Shown piece after piece: positions 20,957-27,111 of a stretch of 64,000 nt of DNA. Position 1 is the first letter of the stretch. Every line of letters starts with the position of its first letter. A program made the position numbers and the translations under genes. Source of the stretch: Bartonella sp. DB5-6 (GTDB taxonomy: Bacteria > Pseudomonadota > Alphaproteobacteria > Rhizobiales > Rhizobiaceae); contig NZ_JH725114.1 in NCBI RefSeq assembly GCF_000278115.1, forward strand, positions 127,409 to 191,408, written 5' to 3'. The notes under the pieces are model-generated. The model worked only from the letters and a program-made list of their open reading frames with translations. It ran no database searches and was not told where the DNA came from.

Positions 20957-22252
20957 ATGTCCGAGAATAAAGCATACATTACAGTGAAAGATAAAAAAAT
21001 AGAATTTCCAGTGCGTAGAGGCACGAGTGGACCTGATGTCATTGAAATTGCTTCTCTCTATAAAGAAACAAATACTTTTACTTATGATCCTGGCTTTACC
21101 TCAACTGCTTCTTGTGAATCAAAAATTACTTACATTGACGGTAATAAAGGAATATTGCTTTATCGTGGTTATCCCATCGACCAACTAGCTGAAAAAGGAG
21201 ATTTTCTCGAAATCTGCTACCTTTTGCTTTATGGTGAACTCCCAACAAAACAAGAAAAAAATGACTTCGATAATTGTATTATGCAGCACACGATGGTACA
21301 TGAGCAATTGGCGCGGTTTTTTCATGGATTCCGTCGTGACTCCCATCCTATGGCCGTTATGGTTGCATGCCTTGGAGCTATGTCTGCATTCTATCACGAT
21401 TCTATTGATATTACAGACTCACAACAAAGAATGATTGCTTCTGTTCGCCTCATCTCAAAGGTTCCAACTCTTGCTGCGATGGCATATAAATATAGTATCG
21501 GGCAAGCCTTTGTTTATCCACGCAATGATCTTAGTTACGCTGCTAATTTCCTCCGTATGTGCTTTTGCGTTCCTTGTGAAGAATACAAAATCAATCCCGT
21601 TCTTACTCGAGCAATGGATCGAATTTTTATTCTTCATGCAGACCATGAACAAAATGCTTCTACATCCACTGTACGCCTTGCAGGATCATCAGGTGCTAAT
21701 CCGTTTGCATGTATTGCAGCAGGTGTTGCATGCCTTTGGGGACCAGCGCATGGTGGAGCTAATGAAGCATGCTTAAAGATGCTACAAGAAATAGGTTCCG
21801 TTGAGAGAATTCCTGAATTCATTGCACGTGCAAAAGATAAAAATGATCCTTTCCGCCTTATGGGGTTTGGGCACAGAGTCTATAAAAATTATGATCCGCG
21901 TGCAAAAATCATGCAAAAAACCTGCCATGAAGTTTTAAAAGAGCTTAACATCCAAGATGATCCACTTCTTGATATAGCTATAGAACTTGAAAAAATCGCC
22001 CTGAACGATGAATATTTTGTTGAGAAAAAGCTTTATCCAAATGTCGATTTCTATTCTGGAATTACATTAAAAGCTCTAGGATTCCCAACTGAAATGTTTA
22101 CTGTTCTTTTTGCATTAGCACGTAGTGTAGGTTGGGTAGCGCAGTGGAAAGAAATGATTGAGGATCCCGCACAAAAGATTGGTCGTCCACGCCAACTCTA
22201 TACAGGCTATGCCATGCGTGAATATGTTCCTATAGATAAACGTACAAATTAA
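20957..22252 (+). CDS. gltA: Citrate synthase, type II
   Basis: Condenses acetyl-CoA and oxaloacetate to citrate, first step of the TCA cycle. 431 residues, the Bartonella size. Catalytic residues are present: His in [12 protein letters not shown], His in [13 protein letters not shown], Asp in PNVDFYSG. The N-terminal small beta domain of the hexameric, NADH-sensitive type is present (TCES-like segment near residue 55). The ATG at 20957 has GAAAGGAA upstream. 21738-22116 is the segment commonly amplified for Bartonella species typing. A perfect hairpin follows the gene. Confidence 0.97.
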
Positions 22253-22263
22253 AAAAAACAAAC

Positions 22264-22295
22264 CACTAAAGCTTCAATTTACTGAAGCTTTAGTG
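22264..22295 (+). terminator. Perfect 13-bp hairpin after gltA
   Basis: CACTAAAGCTTCA (22264-22276) and TGAAGCTTTAGTG (22283-22295) form a 13-bp stem with a six-base loop, eleven bases after the gltA stop. The T-run is on the minus-strand side (A-run before the stem on plus), so it may act in both directions or protect the 3' end. Confidence 0.65.
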
Positions 22296-22821
22296 TGAAT
22301 AATCAAGTAGCACAATTTAAAAGTATTTGACATCGATTTTGAAACTATCTCTAAAAATATAATACTATCATAAAAGCTATGAGAAACGTTTTTTGATGGC
22401 TTTTTTCCAATAAATCAATAGAGACCAAAACGCTCTTTCTTAAGATCAGAAAGACATTTCTGTCAAAAAGAGGTGAAAGAATCAACTTTTAAGCCACATT
22501 CCTCTAAATTAGGTGTATTCTCCATCATTCCCTATACAAAAAGCCTTATCACATACTAAACTCAATGATGTTTAAGAATTCTTTTCCTTTGTTCCTAAAA
22601 AAACATCACCAAAGAATAATTGAAAAATGCTTTTTTTTTACAACTATACACCAAACACTTCTTATTTCTCTTTAGTAGATAAGGAGAAAAACAAAACACT
22701 CTCTTAAAACTTTCCTAAGCAAAATGAATACTTATAAATTTTTGCATTGCTCCAGAAAAGCTTACAGATTATAAAATACATGATAGTCCCATGTTTTCAG
22801 CTTATTCGACAGGAGAACATA
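22296..22821. other. Intergenic stretch before the importer genes
   Basis: AT-rich, with no gene seen. From about 22722 it is homologous to 23897 onward, the left edge of the tandem duplication. A promoter for the first binding-protein gene should lie here. Confidence 0.5.
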
Positions 22822-23574
22822 ATGAAATTATTAGCAGTCACTCTTATAATAAGCGCAACATTTTTCACCCAATTAACCAATGCTCAAACGCTGAAAATTG
22901 CAAGTGACGCTTCCTATCCCCCTTTTAGTTATATTGATTCAAATAATGAACTCCAGGGTTTCGATATTGATATATCTTACGCACTTTGTAAAAAAATGAA
23001 TGTTGAATGTACTCTCATCACCCAAGACTTTGAGGGAATGATTCCTGGTCTTCTTGCAAAAAAATACGATGCGATCATTTCTTCCCTTGCTCCTACACAA
23101 GAGCGCTTACAAAAGATTGACTTCACAGATCCTTATTACAACACGGCACTCGCTGTAATTGTTACCAAAGATTCAGAAATTAAAGAGATCTCTGTTGAAG
23201 CTTTTAAAGGTAAAAATATTGGCGTGCAATCAAATACAACACAAGCTGCATACGCAGAAGACCATTATGCTCCTAAGGGGGTAAGCATTAAACTCTATCC
23301 TACAACAATAGAAGTTAATCGTGATCTTTTAAGTCGCCGGCTTGATGTGGTTATCTTTGATAAACTAAAGGCATTAGACTGGCTCAACAATGGAGGGAAA
23401 GATTGTTGCCAACTTCTAGGAATTTTGGAAGAAACAAAGTTTCCTATTGCAATTGCACTACGTCAAAACAATAATGACCTCAAAGATAAGTTTAATGAAG
23501 CAATAAAAGAGATCCGTCTAGATGGAACTTATGAAAAAATTATGAAAAAATATTTCACATTCAATATTTATTAA
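22822..23574 (+). CDS. Amino-acid ABC transporter periplasmic binding protein, copy 1
   Basis: 250 residues; the ATG at 22822 follows AGGAG closely, so the longer frame to 22747 is rejected. Signal peptide 1-21 (cleavage after TNA). Solute-binding family 3 of the lysine/arginine/ornithine-histidine (LAO/HisJ/ArtJ) type: SYPPFSY, GFDIDISYALCKKM, SSLAPTQERLQKIDFTDPYY, GVQSNTTQ, and a C-terminus LDGTYEKIMKKYFTFNIY that matches the LAO ending. Cysteines at CKKMNVEC could pair as in that family; a second CC is in GGKDCCQLLG. It differs from copy 2 at 23 of 250 positions by my count. Basic amino-acid binding is inferred. Confidence 0.88.
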   Translation: MKLLAVTLIISATFFTQLTNAQTLKIASDASYPPFSYIDSNNELQGFDIDISYALCKKMNVECTLITQDFEGMIPGLLAKKYDAIISSLAPTQERLQKIDFTDPYYNTALAVIVTKDSEIKEISVEAFKGKNIGVQSNTTQAAYAEDHYAPKGVSIKLYPTTIEVNRDLLSRRLDVVIFDKLKALDWLNNGGKDCCQLLGILEETKFPIAIALRQNNNDLKDKFNEAIKEIRLDGTYEKIMKKYFTFNIY

Positions 23575-23649
23575 ATCTTAATATGTATTGAAATTGAACA
23601 CTCTGTTATTTCTAAATACGTCATTTAACTCTTTGTGAGGAATGCAATA

Positions 23650-23679
23650 ATAATTGAGAATTTAGCATTCTTATCATCC
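23650..23679 (+). pseudogene. Stub of a duplicated permease start
   Basis: The first codons of the permease at 24832 are repeated here after an identical GAGGAATGCAATA, but the start is ATA instead of ATG and similarity ends after about nine codons. A breakpoint scar of the tandem duplication, not a gene. Confidence 0.75.
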
Positions 23680-24001
23680 CTTACGAGAAGATTCACATTT
23701 ATTCTCGAGTAATGATCGATTTTTATATATTTTTCAATATCTAAACCTTTCATAACACCTGTGATAAAAATGATATTTTAATTTTGTTTTCTTGAGATCT
23801 AAACTTTTTTATAGTCAAATTGGATAGTTTTTTCAAAGCTAAATTCTATATCTTTTAAATCATGCTGTTCATTATAATGATAACAACATGAGACACAAAT
23901 GAATTTTTATATTGCTCCCAAAAGGGCTTCCAGATTATAAAATACATGATAACCCCATATATGCGCATCATATTTTCCCGCTTATTCGACAGGAGAACAT
24001 A
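23680..24001. other. Spacer between the two binding-protein copies
   Basis: Non-coding and AT-rich. About 23680-23896 is unique to this position; from 23897 the second duplication unit begins. No hairpin with a T-run was seen. Confidence 0.5.
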
Positions 24002-24754
24002 ATGAAATTATTAGCAGTCGCTCTTATAATAAGCGCAACATTTTTCATCCAATTAACTAATGCTCAAACGCTAAAAATTGCGAGTGAAGGCTCTTACCCT
24101 CCATTTAGTTATATTGACTCAAATAACGAACTCCAAGGTTTTGATATTGATATATCTTATGCACTTTGTAAAAAAATGAATATCGAATGTACTATTACTA
24201 CTCAAGATTTAGAGGGAATGATTCCTGGTCTTCTTGCAAAAAAATACGATGCGATCATTGCTTCTCTTGCTCTCACACAAGAGCGCTTACAAAAAATTGA
24301 TTTCACAGATCCTTATTACAACACAGCACTCGCTGTAATTGTCACAAAAGATTCAAAAATTAAAGAGATCTCGGTTGAAGCCTTTAAAGGTAAAAATATT
24401 GGTGTGCAATCAAATACAACACAAGCTGCATATGCAGAAGATCATTATGCTTCTGAAGGAGTGAACATTAAACTTTATCCTACAACAATAGAAGTTAATC
24501 GTGATCTTTTAAGTCGTCGACTTGATGTGGTCATCCTTGATAAACTGCAAGCATTAAACTGGCTCAACAATGAAGGAAAAGATTGTTGCCAACTTTTAGG
24601 AACCTTGGAAGAAACAAAATTTCCTATTGCAATTGCACTACGTCAAAATAATAATGACCTTAAAAATAAGTTTAATGAAGCGATAAGAGAGATCCGTTTG
24701 GATGGTACTTATGAAAAAATTGTGAAAAAATATTTTACATTCGATATTTATTAA
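24002..24754 (+). CDS. Amino-acid ABC transporter periplasmic binding protein, copy 2
   Basis: 250 residues from the ATG at 24002, same AGGAG context as copy 1. Signal peptide 1-21. Same LAO/HisJ-type motifs. Differences from copy 1 include changes close to the ligand pocket: SDAS to SEGS before YPPF, and ISSLAPTQER to IASLALTQER, which alters one of the serines that contact ligand in LAO/HisJ proteins. The copies may therefore prefer different amino acids. The copy is directly upstream of the permease genes (77 bp) and is probably the original partner of the transporter. Confidence 0.88.
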   Translation: MKLLAVALIISATFFIQLTNAQTLKIASEGSYPPFSYIDSNNELQGFDIDISYALCKKMNIECTITTQDLEGMIPGLLAKKYDAIIASLALTQERLQKIDFTDPYYNTALAVIVTKDSKIKEISVEAFKGKNIGVQSNTTQAAYAEDHYASEGVNIKLYPTTIEVNRDLLSRRLDVVILDKLQALNWLNNEGKDCCQLLGTLEETKFPIAIALRQNNNDLKNKFNEAIREIRLDGTYEKIVKKYFTFDIY

Positions 24755-24831
24755 ATACCAACACAAACTAAAATTGGACAAACTGTTTATTTCTAAAAAA
24801 CATTATCTAACTCTTTGTGAGGAATGCAATA

Positions 24832-25551
24832 ATGATTGAGAATTTAGCATTGCTATCATTTAGCAATGGTGGATGGGGTATGGTTATACTTTCTAGTGCG
24901 GGGATGACATTATCGTTGGCTTTGTGCTGTGGAATCTTGGGGCTTCCTTTAGGTCTTCTGAGTGCTGTGATGATTCGATCCAATATTAAGATAGCTAAAG
25001 CTATAGCAATCACCTTTTCATCGATCTTCCGTGGACTACCAGAGCTTTTAACCTTATTTTTAGTTTACTACGGCCTGCAAAATATTATTCAGATTGTCCT
25101 TGATTATTTTAATATTGAAATAATACTTAGTATTAATGCTTTTGTTGCTGGTGTTCTTGCACTCAGTATGGTTCTTGCGGCTTTTTCTTGTGAAGTTTGG
25201 CTCGGAGCATTCAATGTTTTTGATAAAGGTCAATATGAAGCGGCGAAAGCTCTAGGACTTTCAAATTCAACCACATTTTTTCGTATTGTCTTTCCTCAGC
25301 TTATTCGAAATGCCTTACCAGGACTTTCTAATAATTGGCTAACTTTGCTTAAAGATACATCCTTGGTATCAACTATTTCACTTGTTGATCTTATGCGACA
25401 AACAAATCTAGCAGTCGCAGCCACCAATAAACCTATGCTGTTTTATCTTGTGGCTTGCTTACTCTATTTGTTATTTTCAGCGTTTTTTTCTGCAATCCTG
25501 CACCATCTGGAAACATATACTCAAGCAGGATATAGAAAGGTATTTGGCTAA
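24832..25551 (+). CDS. Amino-acid ABC transporter permease, first subunit
   Basis: 239-residue inner-membrane subunit of the HisQ/HisM (ArtQ/ArtM) family with five hydrophobic segments. The cytoplasmic EAA loop that docks the ATPase is EAAKALGLSNSTTFFRIVFPQLIRNALPG. RGLPELLTLFLVYYGL is the second family motif. I take the ATG at 24832 (GAGGAA eight bases upstream) over the GTG at 24817. Its stop codon overlaps the next start (TAATG), so the two permeases are translationally coupled. Confidence 0.9.
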   Translation: MIENLALLSFSNGGWGMVILSSAGMTLSLALCCGILGLPLGLLSAVMIRSNIKIAKAIAITFSSIFRGLPELLTLFLVYYGLQNIIQIVLDYFNIEIILSINAFVAGVLALSMVLAAFSCEVWLGAFNVFDKGQYEAAKALGLSNSTTFFRIVFPQLIRNALPGLSNNWLTLLKDTSLVSTISLVDLMRQTNLAVAATNKPMLFYLVACLLYLLFSAFFSAILHHLETYTQAGYRKVFG

Positions 25552-26258
25552 TGATTCCTGAGTGGCTTTATTTCCTTTTTAATCCTGCTCTTTTGGACCG
25601 TTACGGGCTAAAATTTATTTATGGCTTTATTGTTACTTTGGAGCTTGTTTTTATTTCTTGCTCTCTCGGCTTTTTTCTTGGTATGCTTATTACGTTTGCA
25701 CGTTTATCAAATAATAAGTTTTTACAATATATTGTCCGTGCTTATGTTTATTTTTTCCGCGGATCTCCTTTATTAGTCCAACTTTTTCTTTTTTACTACG
25801 GACTTGGTTCAATGAACAACTTCTGGCAACAGGTCGGTCTATGGTGGTTCTTTCAAAACGCTTGGTATTGTTGCCTTTTCATTTTTGCACTCAATTCTGC
25901 TGCCTATCAATCCGAAATTTTTAAAGGAAGTTTTCTATCCGTAACAACTGGGCAACGTGAAGCATCAAAAGCATTAGGGTTGAGCAATTCTGTAACATTT
26001 TTGAAGGTTATTTTTCCCCAAGCTATGGTTGTAGCATTACGCCCTCTAGGAAATGAGTTTATTTTAATGATTAAATCCAGTGCTATTGCCTCACTCATCA
26101 CTATTTATGATCTAATGGGGATTGCCAAACTCACTTATTCACGCACATTCGATTTTCAAGTTTACGTTTGGGCTGCTCTTATTTATCTTCTGATCGTTGA
26201 GCTTATTCAGCGTTTTATTGTTTTTATCGAATATCGTCTAACTCGGTATTTACGGTAA
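25551..26258 (+). CDS. Amino-acid ABC transporter permease, second subunit
   Basis: 235 residues, HisM/ArtM type, five membrane segments, RGSPLLVQLFLFYYGLG motif and EAA loop EASKALGLSNSVTFLKVIFPQAM. It starts on the last base of the preceding gene (25551). Together the two permeases would form the heterodimeric channel of the importer. Confidence 0.9.
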   Translation: MIPEWLYFLFNPALLDRYGLKFIYGFIVTLELVFISCSLGFFLGMLITFARLSNNKFLQYIVRAYVYFFRGSPLLVQLFLFYYGLGSMNNFWQQVGLWWFFQNAWYCCLFIFALNSAAYQSEIFKGSFLSVTTGQREASKALGLSNSVTFLKVIFPQAMVVALRPLGNEFILMIKSSAIASLITIYDLMGIAKLTYSRTFDFQVYVWAALIYLLIVELIQRFIVFIEYRLTRYLR

Positions 26259-26337: not shown

Positions 26338-27111
26338 ATGAATTTGGAAAATAATCAATCCGTCCACACCGCTAAGAACTCTGTGATTTCTATTCGAAAT
26401 TTAAATAAATGGTATGGAGATTTTCAGGTACTTTATGATATTAACTTTGATGTTGAAATTGCCGAACGCATTGTTATTTGTGGCCCTTCCGGATCAGGAA
26501 AATCAACTTTGATTCGTTGTATTAATCAATTAGAAAAAGCACAAAAAGGTTCCATTTGTGTTCATAATATTGATATTCATGCTGCTCCTTTACACAAACA
26601 AAAAAATGTTCTCCGTAAAATAGGAATGGTTTTTCAGAACTTTAATTTATTTCCCCATATGAGCGTTATACAAAATTGCATTTTAGCACCTATGACAGTT
26701 CAAGGGCTTTCTAAACAACAAGCAAAAGAACGAGCAATTCGTTATCTTACAGATGTTGGAATTGAAAAACACTGTAATAAATATCCTTTACAACTCTCTG
26801 GTGGACAACAACAGCGTGTTGCAATTGCTCGTGCACTTTGTATGGAACCTGAAGTGATGCTTTTTGATGAGCCAACGTCAGCTCTTGATCCAGAAAGTGT
26901 TGGCGAAGTTTTAGAAGTTATGGTTCAGTTGGCCAATACAGGCATTACAATGCTTTGCGTTACTCATGAAATGGGGTTTGCACGTGAAGTTTCAGAAAGA
27001 ATACTCTTTCTAGAAAACGGAAAAATTATTGAAGATGCAGCATCTGACGAATTTTTTATCAATCCTAAAAGCCAACGCGCTTGTGATTTTCTTGCTAAAA
27101 TTAAGCATTAA
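26338..27111 (+). CDS. Amino-acid ABC transporter ATP-binding subunit
   Basis: Cytoplasmic ATPase of the importer, HisP/GlnQ/ArtP family. Walker [11 protein letters not shown]-loop [13 protein letters not shown], signature [15 protein letters not shown], Walker [13 protein letters not shown] and switch VTHEMGF are all intact. 257 residues from the ATG at 26338; a GTG at 26320 is also in frame, and neither has a strong Shine-Dalgarno. Last gene of the binding-protein, permease, permease, ATPase operon; it converges on lpxB across a shared hairpin. Confidence 0.93.

What the first reader, a model, noticed from the sequence alone, without database searches (positions are those of the whole stretch)
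22722..24859. Tandem duplication of the binding-protein gene with a breakpoint scar in the permease start
Seen: two roughly 960-bp units, each with shared upstream sequence, a 250-codon gene and the first codons of the next permease. In the left copy the permease ATG is ATA and homology stops after about nine codons, so the exact extent of the duplicated block can be read. The proteins differ at 23 of 250 positions by my count.
Basis: seen in the sequence. Interest (0 to 1): 0.5.

Follow-up and report, generated by a model that had tools for sequence, protein, structure and literature searches.

The report
Twin amino-acid-binding genes kept different
Many Bartonella species carry two side-by-side copies of a gene for a nutrient-catching protein; the copies appear to keep overwriting each other, yet in all 38 two-copy genomes examined the same ligand-pocket residues differ between them, which suggests the pair is kept because the two proteins catch different nutrients.

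Summary
In detail: two tandem 250-codon binding-protein genes (22822-23574, 24002-24754) differ at 23 residues, with a permease start reading ATA behind the left one. (1) It is a tandem duplication: 38 of 70 Bartonella loci have the pair, and the permease remnant is recognisable behind 16 of 38 left copies, in both main clades. (2) The block is about 1,180 bp, not 960. The 'spacer' is the right copy's duplicated upstream region; the left copy's was later deleted, so the left edge at ~22720 is a deletion scar. (3) Copy divergence cannot date the event: outside one 19-genome clade the copies group largely by species (concerted evolution, presumably gene conversion). (4) Even so, residues 29, 30 and 87 are D/A/S in every left and E/G/A in every right copy (38 of 38). 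Residues 29 and 87 align with ligand contacts Asp11 and Ser69 of the lysine/arginine/ornithine-binding protein. Along the gene, trees group the copies by position only near these codons and near codon 180. Best reading: two binding proteins of different preference feed one ABC importer, and selection keeps the pockets apart. Binding was not measured; conversion-tract tests were significant in only 4 of 38.

The parts
22822..23574 (+). Left binding-protein gene (SBP_bac_3), 250 codons; pocket type D29/A30/S87 (codons 22906-22911, 23080-23082)
24002..24754 (+). Right binding-protein gene, 250 codons; pocket type E29/G30/A87 (codons 24086-24091, 24260-24262) and L70 (24209-24211)
23650..23677 (+). 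Remnant of the permease start (ATA for ATG, nine codons)
   Evidence: sequence; profile hit E 6.6e-16
23667..23690 (+). Duplication junction: end of permease remnant meets start of the duplicated upstream region
   Evidence: homology to upstream regions of other genomes starts at profile positions 93-105 in ten sequences (8 left copies, 2 single-copy genomes)
23678..24001 (+).
22718..22733 (.). Scar of a ~380-bp deletion (relative to L034) that removed the original left edge of the block in the left copy
   Evidence: window upstream positions 12-481 and 466-569 align to L034 upstream 18-481 and 864-970
22718..22821 (+). Surviving promoter-proximal part of the left copy's upstream region, shared with right copies and single-copy genomes
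24755..24859 (+). Right-copy downstream region and first nine permease codons, counterpart of the remnant
24832..25551 (+). Permease 1 (best NCBIfam model ArtQ, below its cut-off)
25551..26258 (+). Permease 2 (best NCBIfam model ArtM, below its cut-off)
26338..27111 (+). ATP-binding subunit (amino-acid ABC importer type)

Best explanation
An ancestral gltA - binding protein - permease - permease - ATPase locus underwent one tandem duplication of about 1.2 kb: some 325-400 bp of upstream region (the shorter value is what the window keeps), the binding-protein gene and the first ~9 permease codons. The result was two binding proteins, each with its own upstream region, in front of one permease/ATPase set. 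The left copy changed two ligand-contact residues, and a neighbour, from the ancestral E/G/A to D/A/S (LAO positions 11, 12 and 69). Since then recombination between the copies, presumably gene conversion, has repeatedly homogenised the rest of the gene in many lineages, while selection kept the pocket residues different. The two proteins most likely bind different or differently ranked cationic amino acids and dock on the same importer, like ArgT/HisJ on HisQMP. Shown: a common junction, a concerted-evolution pattern, fixed pocket differences. Inferred: gene conversion as the process, selection as the keeper, differing ligands, shared importer.
For: 38 of 70 loci have two adjacent SBP genes before one permease set; gltA was matched in 55 of 70. 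Permease-start remnant at E < 0.01 behind 16 of 38 left copies in both clades (best 6.6e-16), against a best E of 3.7 in shuffled controls and 1.7 in single-copy loci. Right- and left-copy upstream homology begins at the junction in ten sequences. Whole-gene tree needs 9-10 label changes, at least 6 forced by starred branches; AU p 0.022 and 0.026 against one left and one right clade. Paralogue dS below the median orthologue dS in 28 of 38. Residues 29, 30, 87 separate left from right in 38 of 38, while residue 90 (LAO 72) is the same in both copies of every genome, S in 19 and A in 19. Of 19 sites nearly fixed (at least 15 of 19 in each copy) in the 19-genome clade, these three hold in 16 of 16 other genomes tested, the remaining 16 sites in 0-6 of 16. 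Label changes: 14 outside the pocket segments, 1-2 inside, 7-16 in 40 random placements; troughs at codons 27-35, 83-91 and 179-187. LAO Asp11 and Ser69 are starred ligand contacts in Table 3 of PMC5740067 (passages). Left-right synonymous divergence is highest at codons 17-31 (0.39-0.49 against 0.23 overall). dN/dS of the window pair is 0.10.
Against: A fragment test for conversion tracts gave p < 0.05 in only 4 of 38 genomes. In 10 of 38 genomes, all in the 19-genome clade, paralogue dS is above the median orthologue dS. The AU p-values are modest. The remnant is not recognisable past the permease start in 22 of 38 left copies. The pocket segments were chosen after seeing the fixed sites. 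With codons 29, 30 and 87 removed, the 'by position' signal around 29 disappears (10-12 changes), is weaker around 87 (7), and stays near 180. Silent positional signal across clades is not significant at 20-40 (10 positive, 6 negative) or 80-95 (9, 3). No binding or transport was measured. Both copies fall below the curated LAO, HisJ, ArtI and ArtJ cut-offs, so no ligand can be assigned. Three of the four nearest single-copy genomes carry the left type (D/A/S), so the order of duplication, pocket change and loss is unresolved.
Confidence: 0.66

Rival explanations
1. Dosage only: two functionally equal binding proteins raise binding-protein supply for one importer; the pocket differences are incidental.
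For: Both copies under purifying selection (dN/dS 0.10-0.24 across 38 pairs); Tyr32, Ser88, Arg95, Gln136 and Asp180 are the same in all 76 copies; both keep a conserved upstream element.
Against: Three sites, two of them at ligand contacts of LAO, differ in the same direction in 38 of 38 genomes although most other sites do not.
Confidence: 0.18
2. Independent tandem duplications in many lineages, each followed by convergent change of the same residues in the left copy.
For: Explains grouping of copies by species without conversion; in 22 of 38 left copies the remnant is too decayed to show the junction.
Against: Where readable, permease remnant and upstream breakpoint coincide across both clades; two-copy genomes are compatible with one clade (AU p 0.58); it needs many convergent changes in the same orientation (9 label changes).
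Confidence: 0.06
3. One old duplication without conversion; the grouping by species is an artefact of a short, saturated gene.
For: 750 columns, 25 open forks; few significant conversion tracts.
Against: The free tree is about 200 log units better than one with all left copies together; within-genome dS is 0.12-0.13 against orthologue medians 0.59-0.72 in L033, L036 and L047; 389-nt identical run in L047; L033 upstream regions 98-100% identical over 200 bp.
Confidence: 0.05
4. A variant of the main reading: the duplication is older than the split from the B. henselae group, which then lost one copy (left type kept in L061, L062, L126; right-like residues 29 and 87 in L067).
For: The pocket-segment tree puts the four single-copy genes with all left copies, support 100/96; residues D/A/S in three of the four.
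Against: AU does not reject left and right copies together without them (p 0.27), and without codons 29, 30, 87 the support vanishes; no junction remnant in their upstream regions. It is compatible with the main reading and changes only the date.
Confidence: 0.4

Closest known systems
argT-hisJQMP and artJ-artPIQM of E. coli
   Same: Two related periplasmic binding proteins of cationic amino acids in one gene cluster; HisJ and ArgT (70% identical) associate with one HisQMP complex, ArtI and ArtJ are supposed to share ArtQMP (PMC6640053, passages).
   Different: Here the window copies are 91% identical in protein, look repeatedly homogenised, a remnant of the duplication junction is still readable, and ligands are unmeasured.
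LAO (ArgT) binding protein, and OccJ/NocT of Agrobacterium
   Same: Same sequence family (E about 1e-49 for the left and 1e-46 for the right copy to LAO chains). Left copies carry LAO's Asp11/Ser69 pair, right copies the Glu/Ala pair of OccJ/NocT (Table 3 of PMC5740067, passages).
   Different: Both copies have Asp at LAO 161 (as LAO) and Gln at LAO 117 (as OccJ), so neither matches LAO or OccJ as a whole; LAO-type models are not met at cut-off.
Primate red/green opsin genes (selection against gene conversion)
   Same: Tandem duplicates more alike within than between species except for a peak of divergence at functional residues (PMC3924837, passages; Teshima and Innan 2008 seen only as its reference 46).
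   Different: Bacterial, one ~1.2-kb unit, 38 genomes as replicates; silent hitch-hiking around the first pocket site is weak.
RF1/RF2 gene conversion in bacteria
   Same: Bacterial paralogues with different specificity exchanging the shared-function domain (PMC4530459, abstract and opening text).
   Different: RF genes are ancient and two conversion cases were reported there; here a tandem pair looks repeatedly homogenised.

Membership tests
SBP_bac_3 (PF00497) extracellular solute-binding proteins, family 3 | score above Pfam gathering cut-off | tested here: met
   143.7 and 138.8 bits against 26.4
LAO subfamily TIGR01096 / ArgT / HisJ equivalogs | curated NCBIfam cut-off | tested here: not met
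   211.5 and 215.7 against 256.35; ArgT and HisJ 172-179 against 440-459
ArtI / ArtJ equivalogs | curated NCBIfam cut-off | tested here: not met
   155-165 bits against 510-522
Polar amino acid permeases TIGR01726 | curated cut-off for the downstream permeases | tested here: met
   49.9 and 69.1 against 42.2
Binding-protein pair sharing one importer (argT/hisJ type) | two adjacent related binding-protein genes beside one permease/ATPase set | tested here: met
   gene order of the window and the other two-copy loci, 38 of 70
Binding-protein pair sharing one importer (argT/hisJ type) | different ligands, same membrane complex | not testable with these tools
   needs binding and transport assays
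Tandem duplicates under gene conversion with selected divergence islands | paralogues closer within species than orthologues | tested here: met
   below the median orthologue dS in 28 of 38, below the largest in 38 of 38; trees. The 19-genome clade groups by position.
Tandem duplicates under gene conversion with selected divergence islands | fixed functional differences at small islands | tested here: met
   fixed differences at ligand-contact positions; their functional effect is untested
Tandem duplicates under gene conversion with selected divergence islands | linked silent divergence around the selected site | tested here: inconclusive
   within-genome synonymous peak at codons 17-31 (circular shifts of the three pocket sites reach the observed value in 2 of 250 for 16 genomes, 16 of 250 for the 19-genome clade, 11 of 250 for all 35) but little positional signal once the selected codons are removed
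Tandem duplicates under gene conversion with selected divergence islands | statistically detectable conversion tracts | tested here: inconclusive
   4 of 38 genomes at p < 0.05

The most novel reading that the evidence does not exclude
A bacterial counterpart of the opsin case, replicated in 38 genomes: persistent conversion erases nearly all differences between two tandem binding-protein genes, and selection restores or protects only a few pocket codons, so the map of 'by position' signal along the gene points directly at the residues that set ligand specificity (codons 29-30, 87, and a segment around 179-189).
Probability: 0.55. Interest if true: 0.65.

Novelty: new variant of a known kind. 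Interest (0 to 1): 0.5.

Why it matters
It turns an apparently routine tandem duplication into a natural experiment on how new specificity survives homogenisation, with many replicate species and a simple biochemical read-out (ligands of two purified proteins). It also warns against dating tandem duplicates in Bartonella by copy divergence, and against reading duplication breakpoints from one genome.

Tried and rejected
Spacer as inserted foreign DNA: rejected; a profile of the intergenic region matches the upstream region of left copies and of single-copy genomes.

A decayed second binding-protein gene in the upstream regions of single-copy genomes such as L067: blastn and tblastn listed no hit.

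Conversion tracts by a run-length permutation test: weak, 4 of 38.

Promoter and terminator scan of 22200-25000: no more hits than in shuffles; not used as evidence.

Literature. Searches searched Bartonella with transporter, duplication or conversion terms; no title or abstract start that was listed describes this pair (1 of 1 listed: 8 of 8: 20 of 119: 12 of 115). Passages of PMC4864206 and PMC3483213 were read; they do not describe it. One search (argT, hisJ, tandem duplication) found no paper. Searches were background searches, seen as listings. Passages were also read in PMC5740067, PMC3102756, PMC6640053 and PMC3924837, and the abstract and opening text of PMC4530459.

Rows dropped: G018 was not fetched (one match). 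L066 and L089 were left out (89 rows). From then on, the binding-protein trees also leave out the bee-type genomes L078-L088 and L133 (94 rows: 76 copies of 38 genomes and 18 single genes); searches use two-copy genomes (one search also four single-copy ones). L125, L129 and L131, near duplicates, were left out of the second genome set (16 of 19 kept). The species tree used all 70 loci, that the 57 without bee-type genomes and L089.

Recalled, from no call: that contig length 1,931,047 (L126) is B. henselae Houston-1; that HisJ has Leu at LAO position 52; that ArtI/ArtJ-type proteins often have Glu at LAO 11. Other species names come from contig-length matches to record titles. The gene names gltX, gltA, comEC, lpxA, lpxB and lpxI in the window are recalled from the translations, not from a database call; 'GltS' in the scripts is the gltX query.
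Full report
OBSERVATION. Two direct repeats are present as described. blastn of the left against the right region gives 851/976 identities, and the start-to-start spacing is 1180-1182 for the long families. Each repeat holds a 250-codon gene (22822-23574 and 24002-24754). The proteins differ at 23 of 250 positions. The left permease start is ATA (23650-23652) and the match ends after nine codons. The products are family-3 solute-binding proteins, followed by two permeases and an ATPase of the polar amino acid importer type, between gltA and lpxB (names recalled).

DISTRIBUTION. All 71 held genomes of the genus have the binding protein. I fetched the locus from 69 other genomes; with the window that makes 70 loci, of which 38 have the tandem pair and 32 one gene. 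Two-copy genomes include, by contig-length match to the named records, B. taylorii (L131, with L031 the nearest to the window), B. vinsonii, B. grahamii, B. tribocorum, B. elizabethae and B. doshiae. On a tree of flanking genes (gltA, two permeases, ATPase) the two-copy label needs 2 changes; holding the two-copy genomes together is not rejected and even gave a likelihood 9 units higher than the free search (AU p 0.58). Their neighbours are four single-copy genomes (L061, L062, L067, L126).

EXTENT OF THE BLOCK. A profile of the region between the two genes was searched against the gltA-to-gene region of left copies and of single-copy genomes. In 14 of 38 left copies the match reaches back to profile position 145 or less; in the other 24 it is shorter, and in the window, L031 and L131 it starts only at 415. 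Ten sequences (8 left copies, counting split matches, and the single-copy L062 and L126) start at 93-105, which is where the permease remnant ends (window 23667-23690). So the 'spacer' is the duplicated upstream region, and the block in the right copy is 23678-24859, about 1,180 bp, equal to the repeat period. In the window only the last ~104 bp survive before the left gene. Its upstream region aligns to L034 positions 18-481 and then 864-970, so about 380 bp, including the original left edge (L034 position 571), are missing. L031 and L131 share the short match, so the loss belongs to this lineage. A profile of the right-copy downstream region finds the permease remnant, past the start codon and at E < 0.01, behind 16 of 38 left copies: 10 in the 19-genome clade (for example L057 4.3e-06, L055 7.7e-06, L044 1.8e-04) and 6 outside it (for example window 6.6e-16, L033 2.6e-13, L129 4.2e-10). 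In 22 it is not seen at that level; L034, L041 and L043 have no hit at all. The best shuffled control has E 3.7, the best single-copy locus 1.7.

CONCERTED EVOLUTION. On the tree of 94 binding-protein sequences the label left/right changes 9-10 times, and starred branches force at least 6. Holding all left copies together costs 202 log units (AU p 0.022) and all right copies 198 (p 0.026). Copies cluster by position inside a 19-genome clade and in small groups, and by genome or species group elsewhere. Within-genome dS ranges from 0.12 to 0.89; it is below the median orthologue dS to the other two-copy genomes in 28 of 38 genomes and below the largest in 38 of 38; the 10 exceptions are all in the 19-genome clade. 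L033 has upstream regions 98-100% identical over 200 bp, and L047 an identical run of 389 nt. Against this, a run-length permutation test on silent codons reached p < 0.05 in only 4 of 38, so individual tracts are mostly not demonstrable.

THE POCKET STAYS DIFFERENT. At residues 29, 30 and 87 every left copy has D, A, S and every right copy E, G, A (38 of 38 each). The 14 deeper single-copy relatives and the 12 bee-type genomes counted have E, G, A, as have the two left out, L066 and L089, so the right copy keeps the ancestral state and the left copy is derived. The alignment to LAO is ungapped from residue 22 to about 122, which places residue 29 at Asp11, 70 at Phe52 and 87 at Ser69; after a one-residue gap, 180 falls at Asp161. 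Table 3 of PMC5740067 (passages) marks Asp11 and Ser69 as ligand contacts and lists Glu and Ala at these places in OccJ and NocT. Other pocket positions (32, 88, 95, 136, 141, 180) are identical in all 76 copies; residue 90 is S in both copies of the 19-genome clade and A in both copies of the other 19, so it changed in step while 87, three codons away, did not. In the window lineage (window, L031, L131) the right copy has also changed Phe52 to Leu. Of 19 sites nearly fixed for different residues in the 19-genome clade, 29, 30 and 87 show the same residues in 16 of 16 other genomes examined, and the other 16 sites in 0-6 of 16.

MAP ALONG THE GENE. Trees of 29 sliding 21-codon windows need 9-20 label changes except at centres 27-35 (2), 83-91 (3-4) and 179-187 (5-6). 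The three segments together need 1 change between left and right; 40 random placements of segments of the same sizes, avoiding codons 29, 30 and 87, need 7-16; the rest of the gene needs 14. The segments were chosen after the fixed sites were known. With codons 29, 30 and 87 removed the segments need 5 changes, and with all semi-discriminating codons removed 8. The first trough then disappears (10-12), the second is 7, the third is unchanged. Synonymous divergence between the copies is highest around codons 17-31, but silent positional signal across clades is significant only at 160-190 (13 positive, 2 negative, p 0.007; not at 20-40 or 80-95). So the protected islands are small.

READING. Two binding proteins with different side-chain preference serve one importer; conversion homogenises the rest. 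This works like ArgT/HisJ with HisQMP (PMC6640053, passages), and the evolutionary pattern is like primate opsins (PMC3924837, passages). The proteins do not reach the curated LAO, HisJ, ArtI or ArtJ cut-offs, so I file them only under SBP_bac_3 and leave the ligands open. The nearest single-copy genomes carry D/A/S (L061, L062, L126) or E/A/A (L067). In the pocket tree they join the left copies (100/96), but AU does not exclude the alternative (p 0.27). The duplication may therefore predate their split and have been lost there; this is open.

Noticed in passing
   Followed up: no
L066: The single-copy binding-protein match stops at residue 242 and the reading frame runs on to 813 bases: possibly a frameshifted C-terminus.
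   Followed up: no
L073: No ATPase match between the permeases and lpxB; the other 69 of 70 loci have one.
   Followed up: no
L063:1124-2535 (oriented): The gene before gltA (glutamyl-tRNA synthetase by recall) matches as two overlapping pieces, suggesting a frameshift.
   Followed up: no
L078-L082, L086-L088, L133: Bee-type genomes (label recalled) have no gltA match in the fetched stretch and about 1.3 kb between permease 2 and the ATPase.
   Followed up: no
window 22740-22776 and 23904-23943: Upstream element TTTTTGCATTGCTCC...CTTACAGATTATAAAA is strongly conserved before left, right and most single copies in the alignment; probably the promoter of each copy, function untested.
   Followed up: partly
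window 23860-23885: A TGATAATGAT...CATCAT-like dyad stretch lies upstream of that element before right copies and many left copies but is missing before the left copy in the window lineage: the copies may be regulated differently.
   Followed up: no
window 22264-22295: Hairpin just after gltA, terminator-like on the minus strand.
   Followed up: no
PMC4864206 (B. bacilliformis), passages: An amino acid ABC transporter gene (BARBAKC583_0595) is listed there among positively selected genes; whether it is this locus was not checked.
   Followed up: no
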